The notes beneath the pieces are model-generated. The model saw nothing but the letters and a program-made list of their open reading frames with translations, made no database searches and had not been told where the DNA came from. From NCBI RefSeq assembly GCF_000452705.1, contig NZ_CP007014.1, positions 2,728,001 to 2,792,000 on the forward strand: 64,000 nucleotides of DNA. The letters run 5' to 3'. Below are positions 6,841 through 19,062 of the stretch, in pieces (position 1 is the first letter of the stretch; the number at the start of each line of letters is the position of its first letter). The DNA is from Pseudomonas syringae CC1557 (GTDB taxonomy: Bacteria; Pseudomonadota; Gammaproteobacteria; Pseudomonadales; Pseudomonadaceae). Made by a program: the position numbers and the translations under genes.

Positions 6841-7348
6841 TGCACTTGAATGCGAGCTCTCCCAGCATTCATTAGCTGAGTAATAGGGCCAGAAGGCAGG
6901 CTCACAGGGCTCTGTCACTAGCGAATCTGGATGCAAGCCGACAACTTTTGCTTGCACCTTCGGCGGGCTCAAGACTCGTCGAACTCACATGGCTGATGGT
7001 CGATACTAGGTTACGCTCACTCTACGCCATCGCCGTGAGGCCTCAAAAAGCCATTGGCTGGATCGAGGCATCTGACTTAGTTAATAGGCGTGACAGATAT
7101 TACCGGCTTCTTCTGGCAGCTTCCCCACACCCAAACTTTGTCAAGTGGTCGACGCCTGCGCCTGTACTTTGTCAGAAAAAAGTGTCCGACGAAGTGGCTT
7201 TGGAGGTGTTCTGTAACGGCAAGGAGGCGGCCTTATCAAGACGTTGAGCGGTATAGCGGACGACTGCCGGTGACGACCACCACATCTGCAGCAAAGGTAG
7301 GATGATCGTTGTTGCACGGGTTGCTGTACGGGTGGGGGCGTATTTGAG

Positions 7349-8239
7349 TTACTTGGGCGACGGGTTACCGCCGGCGTCGGTATTTGCAGCTTTAGCCAGC
7401 TCGACAAGGTGGGAATAATCTGGATCTCTGTTCTGGCGTGGGGTATCAAAGGGAAGGGGCTCAAAACTGTTTGAAATCAACACGGAGATCGGCTGCATTT
7501 CCACGTCCCGGCTGCCGCTCCAGACCAGGTCATAACCAAGGATTTTGCTACCACGCTGTTCATAGCGGGCGTAATATTTTCGGGTGCCGCGATGACCCTC
7601 GATGATGAACAAACTGCCTTTTCTGAAGGATTTAGTTACAGGGGACTTACCGTCGCTAGTCAGGAACCTGTACATCTCATCCATAGCGTCAGGTTTGACG
7701 TCATCGAGACGGAATATCTCGATCGAAACACTTTTGTCTTCGGAATCAATATCGACCAACTTGGCCGGGTTCGATTCCGGATACGTGGTTCTGGTGAGTA
7801 ACATCGAAGGGTAGGCCAGCTTTACACCGGATGTGGGCTCGAGGATGGCCACCCAGCCGCAATTCATCCGTTTAGTCACCGCCAAGTCACCCAAGCGCAC
7901 CGCGAGGTCGGCATTTAGCATCCCGGTGCCAGGTTGATTGTACTGGCGCTGAGCGTTTGCAAGAGCGTCCCGGGTGTCTTTACCAAACTGGCCATCAATC
8001 CGGCCGTTGTAAAAACCGCCCCAAACTAAGCCTTCCTGAATCAGTTTTCGTTCATCGACATTGAGCGAGCCTTCGGTGTTGTCGGTATTTTCAGAAGAGT
8101 TGGCGCGCTCGGGTGCTGCGACATCCGCGAACACGCCTACAGGCTGCCAGACAAAGGTTGCGACAATCGTGATGAACGCCACGTGCAGCATTCGATTTTT
8201 CCAGCTCGACGAGGAGCGAGTTACTACGGTATGTATCAT
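7349..8239 (-). CDS. Exported peptidoglycan-binding-domain-like protein
   Basis: A protein of about 296 residues. A basic, serine-rich N-terminus and hydrophobic segment (MLHVAFITIVATFVW) precede an export site near VFA-DVA. Residues ~55-110 (ERKLIQEGLVWGGFYNGRID, then GQFGKDTRDALANAQRQY) match the PG_binding_1 three-helix repeat that docks periplasmic proteins to peptidoglycan. The C-terminal ~180 residues, rich in beta-strand pattern (TRTTYPES, KYYARYEQRGSKILGYDLVW), are unassigned. ATG at 8239 is used; a TTG codon three bases upstream is less likely. AAGGGG lies about 13 bases upstream. Confidence 0.65.
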   Translation of the reverse strand: MIHTVVTRSSSSWKNRMLHVAFITIVATFVWQPVGVFADVAAPERANSSENTDNTEGSLNVDERKLIQEGLVWGGFYNGRIDGQFGKDTRDALANAQRQYNQPGTGMLNADLAVRLGDLAVTKRMNCGWVAILEPTSGVKLAYPSMLLTRTTYPESNPAKLVDIDSEDKSVSIEIFRLDDVKPDAMDEMYRFLTSDGKSPVTKSFRKGSLFIIEGHRGTRKYYARYEQRGSKILGYDLVWSGSRDVEMQPISVLISNSFEPLPFDTPRQNRDPDYSHLVELAKAANTDAGGNPSPK

Positions 8240-8355
8240 CAATGGAATAGCCCCTTAAGTGCGTTTGCCAGATAAAAAATTCGTCATCGTTTGGTTCAGT
8301 TATCGGGTATTGCTTGATAGCACTTCGAGTGCATAGCCACTGATGCTTGTTCCGC

Positions 8356-8544
8356 TCAAGTGTGTGTCAATACACCTATAACTTCGCCGATCGTAAGCCC
8401 GGACAACATGTGGTCTTTGATCGTACTGGGTGGCAGTTGCCCGCTGGCATGGACGCAGATGGGCAGAATCAAAAGTACGAGCGACGACATGAAGCCAGCC
8501 GTTGCTTCACGAGGTGCCGCTGTCCTGATGCAGGCAGCAGCCAT
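8356..8544 (-). other. Possible tiny exported peptide or remnant
   Basis: The frame contains a signal-like stretch (MSSLVLLILPICVHA-SGQ) followed by only about 29 residues. No Shine-Dalgarno is visible and the opposite strand is also open here, so coding is doubtful. The surrounding 8240-8720 otherwise shows only the operator copy at 8666-8685. Confidence 0.2.
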
Positions 8545-8719: not shown

Positions 8720-9186
8720 TTACTCCAATTCGCCGAGCACGTCGCGCTGCTCGTCCGCCTCCATGGCTACGGCATCCGGTGGCAGGTCTTCGCCCAGCGC
8801 ATCGGCATCGAGTGTCTGCATGTCGCTCGGCGTTTCGATCAGCCGACGCACATCAGCGCGCCAGGCTGATGCCCGAGCGAGGAGCCAGCTTGATCCGATT
8901 TACGGTCAGGACTAAGCGCTTGGCGAAGTCGCTGAACCACAACGAGAAGCCGTGGCCGGTAGAGCGCAGTGACCTGGTTGAGCAAGTTATTGAGCGTGGC
9001 GCTCTTGCCCGAGCCGGTGGGCCCGAAGAGAAACAGGTGGACGTTCATCTGCCTGTCCAGGCGATTGAGTGGGTCGAAGGTGATCGGGCCGCCACCGCGA
9101 TTGAACATCGTGATGCCAGGGTGTCCCGTGCCCTGGGAGCGTCCCCACACGGGCGACTGTGTGTACCACTTTTTCGCCCAAAATTT
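8720..9186 (-). pseudogene. Decayed integrating-conjugative-element ATPase (TraC/VirB4-like, PFL_4706 type)
   Basis: Three minus-strand frames together reconstruct part of the ICE conjugative transfer ATPase. 9186-8940 carries V-W-G-R-S-Q-G-T-G-H-P-G, then the Walker A F-G-P-T-G-S-G-K-S-A-T-L-N-N-L-L-N-Q. About 8936-8860 carries F-S-D-F-A-K-R-L-V-L-T-V-N-R-I-K-L-A-P. About 8850-8720 carries R-R-L-I-E-T-P-S-D-M-Q-T-L-D-A-D-A-L-G-E and ends at a TAA. At least two frameshifts and a small internal loss separate them, and most of the ~950-residue family protein is missing. It is a remnant of an integrated conjugative element. Confidence 0.8.
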
Positions 9187-10410: not shown

Positions 10411-10507
10411 AGAATTTTACTCCTTCGTGCTATAGGAATTAATGCTCGAATTTGCTGTGTTATTGCGCCTTGACTTGAGCTGCGCACGATTATACTAATG
10501 TGCATGA

Positions 10508-10633
10508 GGAAACTGCCTAGATACATCAGGCTCCAGCTCTTCAGAGGTACGACGCAGGCTTTTTATTATTCGGGTCGCAAGTAATCGATTGGGTAACAGG
10601 GGATATGGCTTTTGTATGTTAACCAGAAGGTAT
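10508..10633. repeat. Composite repeat, copy A
   Basis: It contains a 70-bp segment (10508-10577) found in reverse orientation at 17991-18060, followed by a 47-bp segment (10587-10633, starting GATTGGGTAACAGG) found in direct orientation at 18082-18128 with two mismatches. The two copies bracket the helicase/peptidase operon. No transposase is attached. Confidence 0.8.
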
Positions 10634-10681
10634 GTCGGGCAAACGCTAACGTAGGGGCCACCCCCTTCTTCTCGCTGCTGC

Positions 10682-10704
10682 AGCGCGTTCAGATTGAACG
10701 CGCT
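10682..10704 (-). terminator. Hairpin downstream of the helicase gene
   Basis: A perfect 10-bp stem (AGCGCGTTCA/TGAACGCGCT) with a 3-base loop lies 29 bp beyond the helicase stop. There is no T-run after it, so it may be a pause or 3'-protecting hairpin rather than a classical rho-independent terminator. Confidence 0.4.
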
Positions 10705-10732
10705 TGTCACAATCATGCTGCACCGACTCAGT

Positions 10733-13700
10733 TCACTCCGGGGTGATTGAACCCGCCTGCTCTTGATACCCTTTTCGGAGTTTTTCCGCGATCAGCTTTT
10801 CTGCTTCACGCAAAGCGCGTTCGGGACTGTCGAGGGACTTGATCAATGTCTGGCCCTTGGTGCCGATACGGCCAAAACTCACCGTGACCTCGACCTCCGC
10901 CACGCCAATACGCCAGAACTTGTTGGAGTTGCCTTCTCCAAAGGTGAACTCGCGCATCAAGGGTGACGCTTCAGTGGTGAATGGTACGTCGGCCGCAATT
11001 TCGACGGTTCCCTCTGTCTGTTCCAGTTCTTGCAACGCATGCGTTTCCTCCCCCCTTATCAGCCATTCGATGCGATTGAGCACGTCCTCCGAATCGCGCA
11101 GCCAATCATGGCTGAGCACGTCGATAATCTTCCAACCGAAACTGCGCAGTACCGTCGGGCGAAAGATATAACGCTCACGCACGTCAGTTGCAGCTCTATC
11201 ACCGTCCAGCAGCACGCCGAGGCTGAAGTGTTCGCCGCTGGCGTCACTGATCGCCAGGTCACAGCGGAACTGCGAACGTCCAACATATTCCTGGACCGAA
11301 TGCCCGCGTTTGCGCAACTCGGCTGCGATGGCGCCGCGCAGGTGGTCCTTGGGCAGGCTGACGGCAAAGGACTGCTTGGCGCCTGGATTGAGGTTGGCAA
11401 GGATACCCTGGGAGCGCAGCCCATCCCCGCTGGCACTGGCCTGGGCGAATTGCAGGAACGCACGCAGTGCGGCGGCACCATCGTTGTGGGTGTTGGTGAT
11501 GGCTTCGGACTCAATGCTGGAGACAATTGCCATGCGCTTGCGGGCGCGACTGAGGATCACATTAAGGCGTTTTTCCCCGCCACGCTGGTTGATTGGGCCG
11601 AAGTTCATCAGCATCTTGCCGTTCGGTCCTGGCGCGTAGCAGATGCTCAAGATGATCACATCACGCTCATCTCCTTGGACATTCTCCAGGTTCTTGACGA
11701 AGAGGCCATTGAATTGCCCGGCATCTTCACGCACGTACTCACGCTCAAGCCGGGTGGCAAAGGCCGAGTCGCCGCTGGCCAAGTCTTCCAGGGCCTGCTC
11801 GATGGCACCTTGCTGGGCCTCGGAAAAGGCCACGATACCCAAGCTAAGACCAGTCTCCCGTTGCAGCAGCTCCCGTACCAGGTTGGCGATATACCCGGCT
11901 TCGGCCAGGTTGCTGCGGCTGAGGTAGACACCGTCGCTCATCTTCAAGAAGCTGATCGGGTTTTCCAACAGAGTGTCGGCGCCCTGGATCACTGCCTGGG
12001 CGTCCGTGGAGCCAAGGGCTGCGTGAGCCGGGGCAGGGCGCTCGATACGACGGTCGGGAATGGTGATCAGCCGCCCTTCGTAGAACGCTGCATTGGAGAA
12101 ACTGATCAAGGCTTCGTGGCGACTGCGGTAGTGCCAAGCCAAGAGGGTTGCCGGCAAGTTTCGCGCGGCTTGGCTCAGCAGGCTGTCGGCATCAAGGTTA
12201 ATTGCGATTTGTTCGCCATCCTCCATGGCAATCAGTTCGTTATCGTCCTGATCGCCCGCGCTTGAGAAGAAGTTAGTCGGTGGCAGTTGCATCTCATCAC
12301 CGACCACAATCACCTGCTGAGCACGGCTCAGTGCAGGCACTGCTTCTTCGCTGGGGATCTGACTGGCTTCGTCGAAAATCACCACGTCAAACAGGTCCGG
12401 TGTCAACGGCAGGGTGTCGGAAACCGACAGCGGGCTCATCAACCAGATGGGCTTGAGGTCGTTGATCACGCGGCCACTGTCGCCACTCGCCATTTCGCGA
12501 ATGGAACGATAGCGCATGGTCTTGCCCAGCTCATGTTCCAGTTCACGGCGGCCTTTGGCGTAGGCTTTTTTGAACTCACGAGCCTGGGCGTCGAGTTGAG
12601 TCACAGACATCGTCGATTGCTTCACATGCTCCAGAAAGCGCTGGTGCAGCGTCGCGCTAAGCACTTGGGCATTGCTTTTGAGCAGGTTGCATTCAGCCTG
12701 GCTGACCTGGCGCGCGGCCAAACTCAAGGCCGGGCCGTCGAAGCGAGCCAGCTGTGGATTGGCGCGATACAGGCGGGCCAGGTTTTCCTGGGCAATCAAA
12801 CCGTCCAGTGCGCTTTGCGCCAAGGCGTACTGTTGCACAACCGCCAGGCAGACAGGATCTGCCTGGTGTAGCTCATTGAGCAGGGGCAGGGTGTCTGGCA
12901 GCTCGTCGAGTTCTTCACGCAGGTCGCGCAGGTACTCTGCCAACTCGCCCAGGCTCAGCGCCGGGTCGAACACACAATGTTGCGCGACCATCTCGGCCAA
13001 GCGCGCCACCGGCTGGCGCAGGCCGGCTTCCTGGCGTACACCGGACAGGGCGTCCGTATTACCTCGCAGGCCCTCAACCCATTGGCGCAACAGCGGTGAT
13101 GCGCTCAGTTGCTGGAGCAAGGCTTGCAGGTTGTGCACGAACAGGTTGATATCCGGGATGCCATAACGGTCTTGCAAACGTTGCTGCTCGGTATGCAGCT
13201 CGCCAGTGGCGCGATGCTCGCCGGCCAGGTTTTCCAGCACGCTCCGGAAACTGGGTCGAATCGCGTGCTGACTGAAGTCGTAGCGTCGTCGCAATTCACC
13301 GCGCAGCCGCCACCAAGCGGGTTGCAGCCAACGCAGCAGCGAGCCTTCCAGCCGCTGTACCAGATCGATGGCAGCCTGGGTGTCCTGGGGCGCGAGTTTT
13401 TCACGCCAGTGCTGCGTGAATTCACGGGCGTTGTGTTGCTGTACGGCGAGTGCTTGCAATGCCGCCTGCTCGGCGTGCAGCGCTTGCCCTCCCGATGAGT
13501 CCGGTTCCAGCAGGTCGAGGTGCGCTGCCAGGTTGGCGCTGGTCAACTGTTCGGCGGCCTGGGTCAGCACGCACGCATCCGCCAGGCGGGTGTCCCCGGA
13601 CAACAGGCTCGAAGAAGATTCCAGGAATTGCTCGACGCTGTCCATTAGCTCACTGGCTTCATCTAGAAACGCCTTGAGTTGGCCGTACGCATGTTCGTGG

Positions 13701-16186
13701 GTAATCAGGCTTGAGGCCAAATGGCTAAAAGGATGACGTGCCAAGCTGTCGAGGCCAAAACGTTCTTTGATCGCCTGATACACTCGACCAGTCAGCTCGC
13801 TTTGTGCCTGCCAATGGCGCCATTCGGGTAAACGTTCCAAGGCTTCGGGGGGCAGCTTGGCAGCAACGGGCGGCAGCTCGATCAGATGACGCACCAACTC
13901 GCGTACCGAGCATGCCAAGGACTCCGGCATACCGCGCATTGCCTGTTCAAAACGCTCTATCAAGCCCAGTTGTTGGCTCAGGCCGGCCAGTAAGGTGTCG
14001 CGCCGTGCTTGCAACTGCGCCGACTGCGCATCACCGGCGATCCAGCGCTCATAGCAATCGCGCAGCTTGTCCACGAAGGCCTTCTTGTCGGTCTGGGAAT
14101 CGTGGATCAGGCAGCACAACTCACCCAGTTCACTTTGTTGCAGACGGTGGAACACCACGTCCAGCGCTGCACGTTTTTCACAGACAAACAGCACTCGCAG
14201 GCCGCGACCGGCATAGTCCGCGATCAGGTTTGTGATGGTCTGGGATTTGCCGGTGCCTGGCGGTCCCTGAATGATGAAATTACGCCCGGTACGGGCCAGA
14301 CTAACGGCAGCATTCTGCGTAGCGTCGCCAGCAACCACGTTCCATTGTTCGGGTAACGGGATCGGGTCGGGGGCCTGGACCTCGACGTCCCGAGGCTCGA
14401 TGGAGAACATCCGGTCAAACGCTTCGTTCTGCGCCGATTCGTCGATCAACTGTGCATAATCACGCACCAGCGACATCTTGCGATAATTGAAGTTGGCCAA
14501 GGTCACCTGGGTCAAGTCTATGTTCCAGGCGTAGCGATGCCCCTGGTTCTCGGGCATGGCGAAGGTGCTATTTTCGGCGCTGCTGGCAACCATCTGAGGG
14601 TGTTGGTTGCGCAGAGCGGGCTTGGCGCCTACGGCCAGGCGCAGCGGCAACTCGCTGGGCAGCACCTTCTGCTGGAACAACTGCACGCCCAACGGACGGA
14701 AATCTTCGCGGTCGTAGCTGAAATCTGGCTTCATCAAAGGCGCAGACATGCGTTGGCGGGCACGACGGCGCTGGAAGTGGTGCAGATGCTGCACAGCCTT
14801 CTGGTGGATCAGCTCGATTTGCGGTTTACTTTGCAGGCGTAACTCGACGCCGGGCTCCGTCAGTTTGATCTGGTGCGCAATATCGGCATGGATGTCTTCC
14901 AGCGAAGTCTTTTGTAGGTCGACTGTTTCCGGCAACTGGATGTCGTAGAGCTGACGCAATTGATGACGCAGTACCGGGTTGAATTCGGCCTCGGTTTCAT
15001 CGCACTGCAACACGAATTGGTCACGTACCCCTTTTTTGCGACTCAATTCCACCGGCAGCCATAGCAGCGGAGTGACGATGCGTTCTTCCGGCGTGTCCTT
15101 GAGGTTGTGCCAGCGCATGAACGCCACCACCAAACGAAGATTACTGAAGCCGAATTCGGCGCGGTCTCGGCGGGTTTCCTGGATGATGCGCTCCAGCGAC
15201 GCCTGCAACCAGCTCTGGTCTTCGAACCGTAGCCATTGCTGCAGGCCGACAGGTTTACCGCTCAGCAATTGTTCGGAGAATCCGCCGAAGGTGGGCTGCC
15301 AGGTGCACAGCGCTTCGGGCCGGATACTTTCAATGCGCATCACCAACGGAACACTGGCCACGGTCAAGTTGACAGTGGCCTGGGTAGGCCGGAAATACAG
15401 CAGGCGATTGCGACGTGAAAGGTCAAATAACCGGTTGCGCAGATGTTCCAGCACCACAGTGCGCCGCGAAGCAGGGCCTTCGGTCTGGGCCAACACTCGC
15501 TCGACATCGAGGCTGACGGGCTGGTCGCGCCAGGACTCCAGACGGCGTGTCAGCGAGCCTACATCTGTGGCGCGCTCATGGCGGTTGAGCTCAGTCATCT
15601 CGACGATTAGGTTGGCCAGCACCGGGTTGAGTCGGCCATTTAGCTGGAACAGATTGCGACGGTGCCGTGCAAACGTCTTGAGATCATTGATATCGGCGAA
15701 ATCCAGCCCGCACGCCAGGCACGCCAGCAACTGGCCGAGCTGGAATATATCGGTGATCTCATCGTGGTGCCCGAGGCGATGCTCCCAACTTTGCAGTTCC
15801 GGGAGGAACACCGGGTAGTCGATGGGTTGATGCAGGTCTTCTTGGACTTGCAGGTCGGTAATGGCAACGCCGCTTTCCGAATCCCGAATCAGGCGGACTT
15901 TGCCGACGACATTAAGCGCCGATTCCGGATTGGGTTGCACCTGCTTGATTGCTTCCAGCGCCAGTCGCGGAGGGACACCCTCGGGATTGCGCAGTTGCAG
16001 CGTGCGTTCCGGCCCCTGCATCACATCGAGATAACCGAGCTGGGCGACACGTCCCAGTTCATGCAGTTGCGCCACTTGACGTAAAAGCGGTAGCGCGAGG
16101 AACAACACATCGTCGATGGGCACGGCAGCGCCATCGTGGCTATTCAGTAATTGAGTCAATGTGACGGGCTGAATTACTGGGTCCAT
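10733..16186 (-). CDS. Giant kinase-like / DUF4011 / SF1 helicase / Vsr-like nuclease / WGR protein
   Basis: A 1817-residue cytoplasmic protein. Residues ~20-225 look like a degenerate protein-kinase C-lobe (H-E-L-G-R-V-A-Q-L-G-Y-L, then EITDIFQLGQLLACLACGLD) without clear catalytic HRD/DFG. DUF4011 follows from ~245 (RNRLFDLSRRNRLLYFRPTQ). The SF1 helicase core has Walker A G-P-P-G-T-G-K-S-Q (~640), Walker B V-V-I-F-D-E-A-S (~1265), G-D-E-M-Q-L-P-P (~1297) and R-L-N-V-I-L-S-R-A-R-K-R (~1540). Then comes a Vsr/DUF559-type nuclease-like domain (VGRSQFRCDLAI, GVLLDGDRAA; ~1605-1700) and a C-terminal WGR domain (~1735-1800). From memory, DUF4011-helicase-Vsr proteins have been reported as antiphage. 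Its start overlaps the upstream peptidase stop by 13 bp, indicating coupled expression. The kinase-like assignment is the weakest part. Confidence 0.85.
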   Translation of the reverse strand: MDPVIQPVTLTQLLNSHDGAAVPIDDVLFLALPLLRQVAQLHELGRVAQLGYLDVMQGPERTLQLRNPEGVPPRLALEAIKQVQPNPESALNVVGKVRLIRDSESGVAITDLQVQEDLHQPIDYPVFLPELQSWEHRLGHHDEITDIFQLGQLLACLACGLDFADINDLKTFARHRRNLFQLNGRLNPVLANLIVEMTELNRHERATDVGSLTRRLESWRDQPVSLDVERVLAQTEGPASRRTVVLEHLRNRLFDLSRRNRLLYFRPTQATVNLTVASVPLVMRIESIRPEALCTWQPTFGGFSEQLLSGKPVGLQQWLRFEDQSWLQASLERIIQETRRDRAEFGFSNLRLVVAFMRWHNLKDTPEERIVTPLLWLPVELSRKKGVRDQFVLQCDETEAEFNPVLRHQLRQLYDIQLPETVDLQKTSLEDIHADIAHQIKLTEPGVELRLQSKPQIELIHQKAVQHLHHFQRRRARQRMSAPLMKPDFSYDREDFRPLGVQLFQQKVLPSELPLRLAVGAKPALRNQHPQMVASSAENSTFAMPENQGHRYAWNIDLTQVTLANFNYRKMSLVRDYAQLIDESAQNEAFDRMFSIEPRDVEVQAPDPIPLPEQWNVVAGDATQNAAVSLARTGRNFIIQGPPGTGKSQTITNLIADYAGRGLRVLFVCEKRAALDVVFHRLQQSELGELCCLIHDSQTDKKAFVDKLRDCYERWIAGDAQSAQLQARRDTLLAGLSQQLGLIERFEQAMRGMPESLACSVRELVRHLIELPPVAAKLPPEALERLPEWRHWQAQSELTGRVYQAIKERFGLDSLARHPFSHLASSLITHEHAYGQLKAFLDEASELMDSVEQFLESSSSLLSGDTRLADACVLTQAAEQLTSANLAAHLDLLEPDSSGGQALHAEQAALQALAVQQHNAREFTQHWREKLAPQDTQAAIDLVQRLEGSLLRWLQPAWWRLRGELRRRYDFSQHAIRPSFRSVLENLAGEHRATGELHTEQQRLQDRYGIPDINLFVHNLQALLQQLSASPLLRQWVEGLRGNTDALSGVRQEAGLRQPVARLAEMVAQHCVFDPALSLGELAEYLRDLREELDELPDTLPLLNELHQADPVCLAVVQQYALAQSALDGLIAQENLARLYRANPQLARFDGPALSLAARQVSQAECNLLKSNAQVLSATLHQRFLEHVKQSTMSVTQLDAQAREFKKAYAKGRRELEHELGKTMRYRSIREMASGDSGRVINDLKPIWLMSPLSVSDTLPLTPDLFDVVIFDEASQIPSEEAVPALSRAQQVIVVGDEMQLPPTNFFSSAGDQDDNELIAMEDGEQIAINLDADSLLSQAARNLPATLLAWHYRSRHEALISFSNAAFYEGRLITIPDRRIERPAPAHAALGSTDAQAVIQGADTLLENPISFLKMSDGVYLSRSNLAEAGYIANLVRELLQRETGLSLGIVAFSEAQQGAIEQALEDLASGDSAFATRLEREYVREDAGQFNGLFVKNLENVQGDERDVIILSICYAPGPNGKMLMNFGPINQRGGEKRLNVILSRARKRMAIVSSIESEAITNTHNDGAAALRAFLQFAQASASGDGLRSQGILANLNPGAKQSFAVSLPKDHLRGAIAAELRKRGHSVQEYVGRSQFRCDLAISDASGEHFSLGVLLDGDRAATDVRERYIFRPTVLRSFGWKIIDVLSHDWLRDSEDVLNRIEWLIRGEETHALQELEQTEGTVEIAADVPFTTEASPLMREFTFGEGNSNKFWRIGVAEVEVTVSFGRIGTKGQTLIKSLDSPERALREAEKLIAEKLRKGYQEQAGSITPE

Positions 16187-17376
16187 GTGTCGACCTCCGC
16201 TTTGAGCGTACGAACGATCGGGTCGAGCTCACGTTTTGGTAATTTAATATCGCGCTTAAGCACTTTGATAAAGTCGTCGGCGCTGCCGAGTTTCCTGGCG
16301 GTGCGCGCGGCGTGCAGGAGGGCTTCATCCCGCAGGTCGCGGTCCACCACGCTCAGGTCGAGCATAATGAAGTGCAGGTATTCATGGATGCTTGTGTCGA
16401 TACGCTCGGCATTCAGCGTCGCTAGGTCGAGTGGCGTTTCATTATCTCTCCAGTCGGGAAAGAAACCGCGCACCTGGTTGAGCACAACCTCTGATTGCAA
16501 CACGGACGTGCCGATGAAATGGGCAATAAAGCTGCGGGTTAGGTCGGTCAACTCGACCTGACCAGTCACGTCCAGGCGATTGAGCGACAACGGCCCGCGC
16601 AACCGGCGATCCAGCCAGTTATCCGTATCCGGGAGTTGCTGCCACCAGCTGTCGACCGCCTGGGCGCGTAGAAACGTCTCCGGATGGGAAATGGCCTTCG
16701 ATAACTGTGCATCCTTGCCATCAAGCTCGCGGGCCTGCTTCAAGTAGCTGGCGGCATCAACGCTGACAATTCCGGTGTGAATCTTGACCAGCGAGGTAAT
16801 CGACGCTTCTGGCCCATTAGCCACCAGTGCCGCGCCGCGGTCCGCATAAATTTCGGTGTGCAGGCTATATAGACGTGCAGTCTCTTCCAAGCTGGGCGGC
16901 GTATTCACATCGGACATGGCATGATTGAGAATCCGCTCGGCGGTGAGAAAGTCGCCACTGTGCTCAGACCATAAACGGTAATGGGCCAACTCATGTCCCA
17001 GCAACGCCGGTAACTCTTGGGCGTCCAGCCTCTCAAGAATCGGCCCGTAAAACACCACATGCACTTCACCGGCCAGGTAATACAGGCTCGCATTCATCGC
17101 GCCGTCGCCAGCTTGGTAAAGGGTGGCGGGTGCCGTAATCTGCAAACACTGCAATGCTGTTTCACAGGCCTGATAGGCCTGCGGATGGGTTTCGGGACTT
17201 AAGCGATAGGTGTCACGCAGCAATTGCGCACGTACATCCTGGGCGTGTTCCTGCTGAACGCCTAAGGACGAGGCCCATTCCCATACTACAGGTTCATGGG
17301 CTTTGAGGTAGTCGACCACACGCTGGTGGTAAGGCAGTGGCGTCAGGCTGCTGATATCCAGCACTGGGGTACTCAT
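16174..17376 (-). CDS. M48-like zinc metallopeptidase, partner of the helicase
   Basis: A 400-residue soluble protein. The zinc motif H-E-L-A-H lies at ~126-130 (LLGHELAHYRLW) and a likely third ligand in HTEIYADRGAALVA at ~172-185, the M48 arrangement. Unlike membrane M48 enzymes (HtpX, Ste24) there is no membrane helix or signal peptide, so it acts in the cytosol. The C-terminal ~200 residues (including LRAQAVDSWWQQLPDTDNWL and a helical end) are unassigned. The ATG at 17376 (MSTPVLDISS) is preferred over the 17415 opening. AAGGA lies 12 bases upstream, and a TTG nine bases before the ATG is an alternative. It is the first gene of a two-gene operon with the helicase. Confidence 0.75.
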   Translation of the reverse strand: MSTPVLDISSLTPLPYHQRVVDYLKAHEPVVWEWASSLGVQQEHAQDVRAQLLRDTYRLSPETHPQAYQACETALQCLQITAPATLYQAGDGAMNASLYYLAGEVHVVFYGPILERLDAQELPALLGHELAHYRLWSEHSGDFLTAERILNHAMSDVNTPPSLEETARLYSLHTEIYADRGAALVANGPEASITSLVKIHTGIVSVDAASYLKQARELDGKDAQLSKAISHPETFLRAQAVDSWWQQLPDTDNWLDRRLRGPLSLNRLDVTGQVELTDLTRSFIAHFIGTSVLQSEVVLNQVRGFFPDWRDNETPLDLATLNAERIDTSIHEYLHFIMLDLSVVDRDLRDEALLHAARTARKLGSADDFIKVLKRDIKLPKRELDPIVRTLKAEVDTWTQ

Positions 17377-17469: not shown

Positions 17470-17512
17470 CGCGTAGCATACCTAGGGTGTGGGTAAAATA
17501 CTTGTGAAAGTA
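17470..17512 (-). promoter_or_regulatory. Weak candidate promoter for the peptidase-helicase operon
   Basis: Read on the minus strand, TTCACA is followed after 18 bases by TAGGTA, about 100 bp upstream of the peptidase start, in an AT-rich patch (tatatata). The match to sigma-70 consensus is modest and no operator was found. Confidence 0.25.
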
Positions 17513-17873: not shown

Positions 17874-17990
17874 CTATAAGGAAGTAAATGGCTGGGAGGC
17901 TTATAGAAGTCTGCGCGCGAAGACTTCCCGGTTCGCCAGAGTTTTTAAGCGTCTGAGCATGCCGTCATGCTTCTGTATGCCGATTACTGA

Positions 17991-18128
17991 CGACCCGAAT
18001 AATAAAAAGCTTGTCTCGTCCCTGTGAAGAGCTGGAGCCTGATGTATCTAGGCAGTTCCCGCCTGTATCCGTACGGTGCAGGATTGGGTAACAGGCGATA
18101 TGGCTTCTGTATGTTAACCAGAAGGTAT
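17991..18128. repeat. Composite repeat, copy B
   Basis: 17991-18060 is the reverse complement counterpart of 10508-10577 (about 85 percent identical by eye). 18082-18128 is the direct counterpart of 10587-10633. The relative orientation of the two blocks is thus flipped between copies. Confidence 0.8.
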
Positions 18129-18287
18129 ATTGGAAAAATGCTAACACAACAGATGCAGATATTAGTGATCTTCTGGGTCGGCAACTGCATCATTCTATTA
18201 CGTTAAACAGTAATTCAAGGCTGATCGGCGCGAGCGCGCTTTGAGTTAGCAACTTCACGTAAGACTCGACATTGCAAGGATGAGTCC

Positions 18288-18545
18288 ATGTCGACTTCGT
18301 AATCGACGTATTTGCCCTCGCATCGTTGGCTGGAAGGCGTCGTTCTCAATGCAGACATCTTGCTCGACGCCTTCGAACGGACGCTCTACGCGAGGAAGCC
18401 GGATTGCTCTAGTTGTCTGATTCATCACAGCGACCGAGGAGTTCAGTAGGTATCGATCTATTACATGGGGGGGCACCGAGGTTGGCAGTCCCTGTACGTT
18501 GGTGGAAGTCTCTGTATGAGCGTTATTGCCTAGGAAGGAAAACGA
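18288..18545 (+). pseudogene. Remnant of an IS3-family transposase (OrfB)
   Basis: Pieces of the DDE integrase domain are recognisable in shifting frames: V-D-F-V-I-D-V-F-A (18289-18315, with the catalytic Asp), R-I-V-G-W-K-A-S (18319-18342), I-L-L-D-A-F-E-R-T-L-Y-A-R-K-P (18357-18401), and L-I-H-H-S-D-R-G-V-Q followed by a TAG where tyrosine is expected (second catalytic Asp). At least two frameshifts and a nonsense codon make it dead. No terminal inverted repeats are evident. Apart from the repeat and the fragment at 17667, 17377-19062 has no intact gene that I can support. Confidence 0.75.
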
Positions 18546-18683
18546 GGCTACAATTGAGTCCTTCGCTAACGAAGCAGGCGAAGAAAACAGTTGGAAAACA
18601 ATGACTTAGTGCTTCAATGCATGTCTCGTTTCCCGCTCCATATATAGCGTTACAGGATTCGAATGAATGTTGTAGCGATGAAA

Positions 18684-18709
18684 TAAAGGACCTTCGGGTC
18701 TTTTTTTTC
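18684..18709 (+). terminator. Rho-independent terminator without an obvious gene
   Basis: A stem AAAGGACC/GGTCTTT (one G-T pair) with the stable TTCG tetraloop is followed by eight T residues on the plus strand. No intact plus-strand gene ends here, so it may end a small RNA or be left over from the decayed element. Confidence 0.6.
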
Positions 18710-19062
18710 GTTTCCGCGAAAACGCGTCTATTTAGAGCCATCCTCAATTTCCCCACGTCAATCCACGTGCCCGACAGGGTGCTTGAACGCGCTTGATCGG
18801 TCACTCGACTAATACGCATCGAGCAGGACCGGCTTAAATATTTCTCAAAAGCATACCGAAGTGTACATTTTAGATTGACGAGCTCTCGTTGAACGTCTAA
18901 AACTGTACTCCTTGGTACAGCTTTGATGAGGTCAGCCCTCTTGGTGTCCACACTCCTCAGCTGAACAACGTCAACGTGCATTCCCGCCCGTTAATGCTCT
19001 GCGTTGAGCACTGCCGGCGAACGTCTGAATTTAAATGACCCGATTGTTCTGGAGAGTTATGC

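What the first reader, a model, noticed from the sequence alone, without database searches (positions are those of the whole stretch)
10733..17376. Two-gene metallopeptidase plus giant kinase-like/DUF4011/helicase/nuclease/WGR operon, a candidate defence system
Seen: a cytosolic M48-like HELAH peptidase gene overlaps by 13 bp a 1817-residue protein combining a kinase-like N-domain, DUF4011, a complete SF1 helicase core, a Vsr/DUF559-like nuclease domain and a C-terminal WGR nucleic-acid-binding domain. Both genes are intact while nearly everything within several kb is decayed, which implies selection to keep them. Known: DUF4011-helicase proteins, some fused to Vsr-like nucleases, occur in defence islands (recalled, not checked). 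Inference: the helicase-nuclease senses or cuts foreign nucleic acid and the peptidase either processes it or is an effector. The peptidase partner is the unusual part.
Basis: partly seen in the sequence, partly recalled or inferred. Interest (0 to 1): 0.78.

Follow-up and report, generated by a model that had tools for sequence, protein, structure and literature searches.

The report
Protease-helicase gene pair, possible defence
Two bacterial genes that travel together as one unit, and in other bacteria are fused into one giant protein, couple a protein-cutting enzyme to a DNA/RNA-motor protein related to known anti-phage proteins; this suggests a machine that cuts proteins when it meets particular nucleic acids, but what it cuts and whether it protects against phages is untested.

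Summary
A 400-aa M48 metallopeptidase gene (ATG at 17376) overlaps by 13 bp an 1817-aa DUF4011/SF1-helicase/Vsr-like-nuclease/WGR gene. The kinase-like N-domain is real by fold, but resembles the C-lobe of protein kinases only.

The pair is a real unit: peptidase directly upstream in 47 of 49 full-length relatives sampled from seven phyla; helicase adjoining in 18 of 18 genomes with a close peptidase. A second lineage fuses M48, TerB, DUF4011, helicase and nuclease regions in one chain, mostly about 2000 aa. There HExxH is kept in 120 of 120 checked, but the nuclease Asp in 13 of 111 aligned. The window's lineage keeps both. My reading: a nucleic-acid-triggered protease; the helicase chain senses, the peptidase acts.

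Defence is plausible, not shown. The helicase resembles the ProA and Hhe anti-phage proteins, but scores below their cut-offs. The pair moves as a lone ~6.8-kb cassette among mostly ordinary genes; tblastn found no peptidase in 72,556 plasmid or 50,697 phage records, nor did a viral-contig scan. No library searched names the pair. Verdict: new variant of the DUF4011-helicase kind.

The parts
16174..17376 (-). M48-family metallopeptidase gene, 400 aa (ATG at 17376)
16981..16995 (-). HExxH zinc motif (H128-H132); third ligand region E175-D179 at 16840-16854
   Evidence: H128, E129, H132, E175, D179 invariant in 85 aligned peptidases; HExxH in 120 of 120 listed relatives (116 by the strict pattern, the other 4 as HEIAH)
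16177..16569 (-). C-terminal helical part of the peptidase (residues about 270-400), TerB-like by profile alignment only
   Evidence: Pfam TerB is hit in the fused relative, not here
10733..16186 (-). 1817-aa DUF4011/SF1 helicase/MTES_1575 nuclease/WGR gene, overlapping the peptidase gene by 13 bp
15524..16171 (-). Kinase C-lobe-like domain (residues 6-221), no N-lobe
14957..15433 (-). DUF4011 (residues 252-410)
11516..14326 (-). SF1 helicase core (AAA_11 start to AAA_12 end, residues 621-1557; Walker A GPPGTGKS 641-648)
11066..11332 (-). Vsr-like nuclease domain MTES_1575 (residues 1619-1707); Asp at the first catalytic position, D1643, present
10754..10957 (-). WGR domain (residues 1744-1811)
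   Evidence: absent from the precomputed Pfam lists of some relatives such as P0133, P0134, P0137
17377..17511 (-). Conserved upstream region of the cassette (ribosome-binding site, presumed promoter)
   Evidence: Aligned in the window and 13 other Pseudomonas loci, with an outer edge near TTTCACAAGTA that L098 lacks; DNA similarity to most loci stops here. No sigma-70-type site was found inside it
10682..10704 (.). Perfect 10-bp hairpin with 3-nt loop after the helicase stop, without a T-run
   Evidence: Read; visible in about 9 of the 14 loci aligned; not scored as a terminator
10587..10650 (+). Left copy of a 64-nt direct repeat flanking the cassette
   Evidence: partner 18082-18145, 89% identical
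18082..18145 (+). Right copy of the 64-nt direct repeat
10503..10587 (+). Left arm of an 85-nt inverted repeat, 88% complementary to 17981-18065

Best explanation
The two genes encode one machine in which a DNA/RNA-handling chain (kinase-like C-lobe, DUF4011, SF1 helicase, nuclease-fold and WGR domains) recognises abnormal or foreign nucleic acid and thereby switches on or positions a partner zinc protease. The conserved output is proteolysis. The nuclease domain cuts or merely grips nucleic acid and can lose its catalytic residue. The likeliest use is defence against phages or other invading DNA, by cutting an invader or host protein. Shown: the partnership, the intact motifs, purifying selection, the fusion, and nuclease decay in the fused lineage. 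Inferred: physical contact of the split proteins, triggering by nucleic acid, proteolysis as output, defence.
For: Peptidase directly upstream, same strand, in 47 of 49 full-length relatives and in 0 of 31 less similar hits of the same scan, 8 of which have under 800 bases before the frame and so cannot be judged. Peptidase-first: 18 of 18 genomes with a close peptidase (270 bits or more) have the helicase next to it. A 4-nt overlap is possible in 26 of 47 loci and the window's 13-nt overlap recurs in 3. 202 relatives of a fused M48-TerB-DUF4011-helicase protein; the 120 listed were checked. HExxH in 120 of 120 listed split and 120 of 120 listed fused proteins, while the nuclease Asp is kept in 13 of 111 aligned fused proteins (9 of 120 not aligned), against 29 of 29 non-peptidase cousins, 118 of 118 aligned listed pair helicases (2 of 120 not aligned) and 41 of 47 pair loci. 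dN/dS 0.08-0.13. Kinship to anti-phage models. Patchy: 15 of 398 genomes of the window's genus, in different settings. A GmrSD restriction gene 196 bp away in one relative, a PDC-S65/SIR2-like gene about 1 kb away in another, OLD-TOPRIM and AbiEii genes near one fusion.
Against: No tblastn match of the peptidase or of a fused M48-TerB stretch in 72,556 plasmid and 50,697 phage records, nor of the split peptidase in a viral-contig scan, although relatives of the helicase region are on 451 plasmid records (none covers 80% of it). Neighbours are mostly ordinary genes. The PADLOC excess is small: 35 models, 25 shown, on perhaps ten of 102 near ORFs, against 6 models on perhaps five of 90 far ORFs (no statistical test). 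Outside Pseudomonas 118 near ORFs matched 21 models, many of them general helicase models. Of ten near ORFs looked up singly only two matched a defence model. In the window's own lineage the nuclease Asp is kept, so the nuclease may still be an effector there. Three Chitinophaga relatives lack the peptidase. Distant stand-alone M48(-TerB) proteins exist without a helicase beside them. No experiment.
Confidence: 0.45

Rival explanations
1. A genome-maintenance machine, working like SPRTN/Wss1 (recalled): the helicase chain tracks along DNA and the protease degrades proteins crosslinked to or stuck on it, whether cellular or from mobile elements.
For: Same enzyme combination (metalloprotease, helicase, DNA-binding WGR domain, nuclease fold); not found in the plasmid, phage and viral collections searched; flanks mostly ordinary genes; loss of the nuclease Asp where the protease is fused.
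Against: Very patchy (15 of 398 genomes of the genus) and carried as a cassette in different settings, unlike housekeeping repair; closest named relatives are anti-phage models.
Confidence: 0.2
2. The nuclease-helicase is the anti-phage effector, as in Hhe/ProA, and the peptidase only activates or licenses it by cleaving the large chain or a repressor, as CapP does with CapH in CBASS (recalled).
For: Nuclease Asp kept in 118 of 118 aligned listed pair helicases and 41 of 47 pair loci; the peptidase is encoded first, in its own chain; metallopeptidase switches are known in defence and in the IrrE/DdrO damage response (abstract start of PMC8533742 seen in the listing, otherwise recalled; CapP recalled).
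Against: In the fused lineage the nuclease Asp is mostly lost (13 of 111 aligned) while HExxH is kept in 120 of 120; six Bacteroidota pair helicases also have Ser/Thr there; no repressor-like gene recurs beside the pair except common LysR-type regulators.
Confidence: 0.2
3. The pair serves another cellular stress function; kinship to defence proteins reflects shared domains only.
For: A DUF4011 gene, which I did not compare with this one, is a core gene in every P. aeruginosa isolate of one survey (passages of PMC10250203); stand-alone M48(-TerB) relatives without a helicase beside them sit among ordinary-looking genes in nine Pseudomonadales genomes.
Against: Different genomic settings and strong conservation of the two-gene unit.
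Confidence: 0.15

Closest known systems
ProA anti-phage protein (NCBIfam NF058533; perhaps the DefenseFinder system Prometheus, the link between the two names being my guess)
   Same: Helicase core and MTES_1575 nuclease region: best stretch residues 553-1734, 689 bits
   Different: Score under half of the curated cut-off (1500); the best stretch leaves out the kinase-like N-domain and the WGR domain; the less similar hits L050-L080 have no peptidase beside them (8 of 31 not judgeable)
Hhe anti-phage protein (NF042953; PADLOC Hhe)
   Same: DUF4011-helicase-nuclease chain; 472 bits
   Different: Cut-off 2000 not met; the model is of a single protein without an M48 partner
PADLOC candidate PDC-S37
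   Same: Best PADLOC hit of the helicase, 683 bits
   Different: A model of one protein; no PADLOC model hits the peptidase at E<=0.1
M48 peptidases (HtpX, Ste24/ZMPSTE24, BepA)
   Same: HExxH, third ligand and HPE region; fold match
   Different: No membrane-like segment; extra C-terminal helical region; operon or fusion with a helicase
CapP (CBASS) and IrrE metallopeptidases (recalled)
   Same: Metallopeptidases tied to DNA stress or defence
   Different: Another peptidase family (recalled); CapP came up only at Foldseek rank 22, probability 0.16, which is no evidence of kinship; they cut a repressor (recalled), and I found none here

Membership tests
ProA anti-phage protein (NF058533) | Whole-protein score at or above the curated cut-off 1500 | tested here: not met
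   689.3 bits; four other split members 664-713 and the Gilvimarinus fusion 506
Hhe anti-phage protein (NF042953) | Score at or above the curated cut-off 2000 | tested here: not met
   472.5 bits
PADLOC PDC-S37 | Match to the candidate model (no curated cut-off given) | tested here: inconclusive
   683 bits, best stretch residues 551-1724
Mokosh (MkoA/MkoC) | Mokosh helicase model plus its partner architecture | tested here: inconclusive
   Best stretches in the helicase region only, 133 and 71.5 bits
M48 peptidase | Pfam PF01435 above cut-off with HExxH and downstream Glu | tested here: met
   35.4 bits against 20.3; residues invariant in 85 sequences
MTES_1575 (Vsr-like) nuclease | Pfam PF18741 above cut-off; Asp at the first catalytic position | tested here: met
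   57.5 bits against 38.2; D1643 present
Active protein kinase | N-lobe with ATP-binding Lys, HRD and DFG motifs | tested here: not met
   No Pfam kinase hit; the fold match covers the C-lobe with no room for an N-lobe; no HRD Asp at the corresponding loop (my reading of the consensus)
TerB domain in the split peptidase | Pfam TerB match | tested here: inconclusive
   No Pfam TerB hit in the window protein; profile alignment to a fused protein that has one, probability 99.5% over 345 columns, the TerB part aligned less clearly
Anti-phage defence system | Protection against phage that depends on the genes | not testable with these tools
   Needs an experiment

The most novel reading that the evidence does not exclude
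An unnamed class of nucleic-acid-gated proteases: M48-TerB metalloproteases coupled, as an operon or as one ~2000-aa chain, to DUF4011-SF1 helicases that have shifted their output from DNA cutting to protein cutting, with the nuclease fold mostly reduced to a non-catalytic module in the fused form. It would be a protease effector in genome defence, or a bacterial counterpart of SPRTN.
Probability: 0.35. Interest if true: 0.83.

Novelty: new variant of a known kind. Interest (0 to 1): 0.64.

Why it matters
DUF4011 helicase-nucleases include named anti-phage proteins whose trigger and mode of action are, as far as I recall, little understood. A deep lineage that nearly always carries a protease, plus a second that fuses one and mostly loses the nuclease Asp, offers a direct way to ask what the helicase senses and whether its output is DNA or protein cutting. 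It gives a clear prediction (peptidase-dead but not nuclease-dead mutants lose function) and a ready two-gene cassette to test in laboratory Pseudomonas.

Tried and rejected
Chance or an annotation artefact was rejected: long open frames with dN/dS about 0.1 and the same neighbour in seven phyla.

A typical defence-island resident: not supported as a general rule. I could not map every PADLOC model to an ORF; one search looked up ten near ORFs and two matched.

A thymidylate-kinase-like gene as a third partner: it lies within 400 bp of the pair in 5 of 15 Pseudomonas loci, but is found in 61 of 119 genomes of the genus and, in the 20 regions read, in varied settings, so I do not count it as a part.

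Peptidase on phages or plasmids: none; viral contigs, split form only: none. CapP kinship: rank 22, probability 0.16, rejected. No TerB fold appeared in the lists, which are filled by the M48 part, so this says nothing.

Literature: ten searches (some lists were capped) listed no paper whose title or abstract start describes this pair; I did not open all listed papers, and the library lacks most subscription journals. Papers opened, passages only: PMC10250203, PMC3710099, PMC12629846, PMC11718236 (there Prometheus is an instrument), PMC12390725, PMC6589727.

Counts mended: the nuclease Asp was first counted with a text pattern (pair helicases 115 of 118 found, pair loci 39 of 47, fused 12 of 103, cousins 26 of 26) and then by alignment column, which I quote; both give the same picture.

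Rows dropped: L050 left out of the tree (frame in two pieces). 118 of the 225 near ORFs were given. One of 91 far ORFs (L156:14265-20000) was left out. The 205 far ORFs were not scanned. Listed: 120 of 889 peptidases, 120 of 1074 helicases, 120 of 202 fused relatives. One search gave 27 matching genomes, of which 22 are weak matches to general M48 proteins (E above 1e-6) that I set aside.
Full report

THE PAIR IS A UNIT. L001-L049 match the whole protein or nearly so; the peptidase lies upstream on the same strand, next to the helicase, in 47 of 49. The exceptions L023 and L045, and the shorter L058, are Chitinophaga. None of the 31 remaining loci (L050-L080, L058 included) has it, but 8 of these have under 800 bases before the frame and cannot be judged. 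Phyla with the pair: Pseudomonadota, Verrucomicrobiota, Planctomycetota, Bacteroidota, Actinomycetota, Bacillota, Myxococcota. From the other side, a close peptidase (270 bits or more) was found in 15 of 398 genomes of the genus, in G579 and G516 besides two of these among 397 genomes of the phylum, and in G1040 besides G000 among 274 of the class; in all 18 of these genomes the helicase adjoins. The helicase start nearest to the peptidase stop overlaps it by 4 nt in 26 of 47 loci; three of the four Pseudomonas in that set overlap by 13 nt like the window (taking the nearest start favours short distances). dN/dS is 0.08-0.12 for the helicase and 0.08-0.13 for the peptidase.

A FUSED FORM. One phylum hit (G361; Gilvimarinus by the name of protein P0241) is a single 2073-aa frame with M48, TerB, DUF4011, helicase and MTES_1575 regions (the MTES_1575 match of 31.9 bits is under its cut-off of 38.2). 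A search with its first 700 residues found 202 relatives, 120 listed, 114 of them of 1800 aa or more. All 120 match the helicase profile, 119 of 120 the peptidase profile, and all 120 have HExxH. Two more fusions turned up among 274 class genomes (G1261, G1147). This is strong evidence that the peptidase and helicase act together. In a tree of 99 helicase cores the pair's clade (window, 47 loci with peptidase, three Chitinophaga without) has SH-aLRT 99 and the 19 fused rows 100, while 27 loci without peptidase form a third group and two more (L070, L074) fall beside the fused rows on long branches; the root is unknown, so one origin with loss and two origins are both open (quick method, long branches flagged).

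WHICH ENZYME IS THE OUTPUT? At the position of D1643, by alignment column, the 29 non-peptidase cousins (L051-L080 without L058) all have D. Listed pair helicases have D in 118 of 118 aligned (120 examined); pair loci in 41 of 47, the other six, all Bacteroidota, having Ser or Thr, as do the three Chitinophaga. Fused proteins have D in 13 of 111 aligned (120 examined) and Pro in 88 (an earlier text-pattern count gave the same picture). HExxH is in 120 of 120 listed split and 120 of 120 listed fused peptidases. So where the protease is fused, the nuclease has mostly lost a key residue while the protease is kept. In the window's lineage both are intact. I infer that proteolysis is the conserved output. 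That the Asp is catalytic rests on general knowledge of the Vsr/PD-(D/E)XK fold, not on a test here.

WHERE IT SITS. Between the window and seven other Pseudomonas loci, DNA similarity begins at 10654-10764 and ends at 17486-17511 (G080, more distant, only inner pieces), and no flank is shared, apart from matches of L093 to window 56-61 kb. Against G017, homology of five other loci (G707, G722, G670, G669, G723) likewise runs from about the helicase stop to about 135 bp before the peptidase start; in G095 it runs on into the kinase-like gene next door. The unit is therefore a self-contained cassette. Four loci (G017, G707, G722, G669) have it within about 8 kb of the same PEP-mutase gene, with different DNA between; in G090, where this region shows no pair, that place holds a KaiC-like and a response-regulator-like gene (labels read from the sequence starts). 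In the window, 64-nt direct and 85-nt inverted repeats bracket the cassette.

DEFENCE OR NOT. For: kinship to ProA, Hhe and PDC-S37; a GmrSD gene 196 bp from the pair in G707; a PDC-S65/SIR2-like gene in G188; OLD-TOPRIM and AbiEii genes and an integrase near the Gilvimarinus fusion; patchy distribution in different settings. Against: 35 PADLOC models among 102 near ORFs, but on few distinct ORFs, against 6 models among 90 far ORFs, and 21 models among 118 near ORFs of other taxa, without a control; only two of ten near ORFs looked up singly matched; Pfam of the near set shows response regulators, LysR regulators, transporters and the like; the peptidase has no match in plasmids or phages or in a viral-contig scan, while relatives of the helicase region occur on 451 plasmid records. 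So defence is the likeliest single use but not established.

WHAT IS KNOWN. MTES_1575 was described as a Vsr-like nuclease in a protein with an SF1 helicase (passages of PMC3710099). ProA is an NCBIfam anti-phage name; Prometheus is listed among the abundant systems of one Pseudomonas island hotspot (passage of PMC12629846); that ProA belongs to Prometheus is my guess. No library searched (PADLOC 2.0.0, NCBIfam 20.0, Pfam) names the pair, and my ten literature searches listed no description of it.

VERDICT. A real, conserved protease-helicase system; a new variant of the DUF4011-helicase kind. Mechanism committed to: nucleic-acid-triggered proteolysis, probably in defence (0.45).

Noticed in passing
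window 8839-9150 (-): Fragment of a conjugative-transfer ATPase (traC_PFL_4706, 71 of 892 model positions), probably a remnant of an integrative conjugative element beside the cassette.
   Followed up: partly
window 18561-18642 (+): Rfam sX8 small RNA (71 bits, gathering score 50), overlapped by the frame 18523-18981 (-).
   Followed up: no
window 10503-10650 and 17981-18145: Direct and inverted repeats of 64 and 85 nt bracket the cassette; for 10508-10650 the search of 38 genomes (few candidates scored per genome) showed no copy other than these.
   Followed up: partly
window 7311-8396: Two further copies (80-82% identical) of about this stretch lie in the same genome at C1:2663173 and C1:2712935.
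   Followed up: no
L158-L162 and L165-L168: Stand-alone M48(-TerB) proteins (open frames of 377-423 aa) in nine other Pseudomonadales genomes, without a helicase beside them and among ordinary-looking genes; three of the nine genomes have a DUF4011-type helicase match elsewhere; six similar proteins in the class sample.
   Followed up: partly
L097:1340-1951 and homologues: A thymidylate-kinase-like P-loop protein lies beside the pair in 5 of 15 Pseudomonas loci, and in 61 of 119 genomes of the genus in varied settings; possibly itself cargo of variable regions.
   Followed up: partly
G080:C1:444516-445699 (L088, L089): A diverged peptidase gene split over two frames, with the helicase still beside it; disrupted gene or assembly error.
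   Followed up: no
P0330: A fused M48-DUF4011-helicase protein with an additional exonuclease domain (PF00929) in Nannocystis; its HExxH lies late, near residue 447.
   Followed up: no
L023, L045, L058: Chitinophaga helicases without the peptidase, with Ser/Thr at the nuclease Asp; L058 matches only from residue 237, so it may also lack the kinase-like domain.
   Followed up: partly
L146:194-1276 (+): A protein-kinase-domain gene 303 bp from the pair in G691.
   Followed up: no
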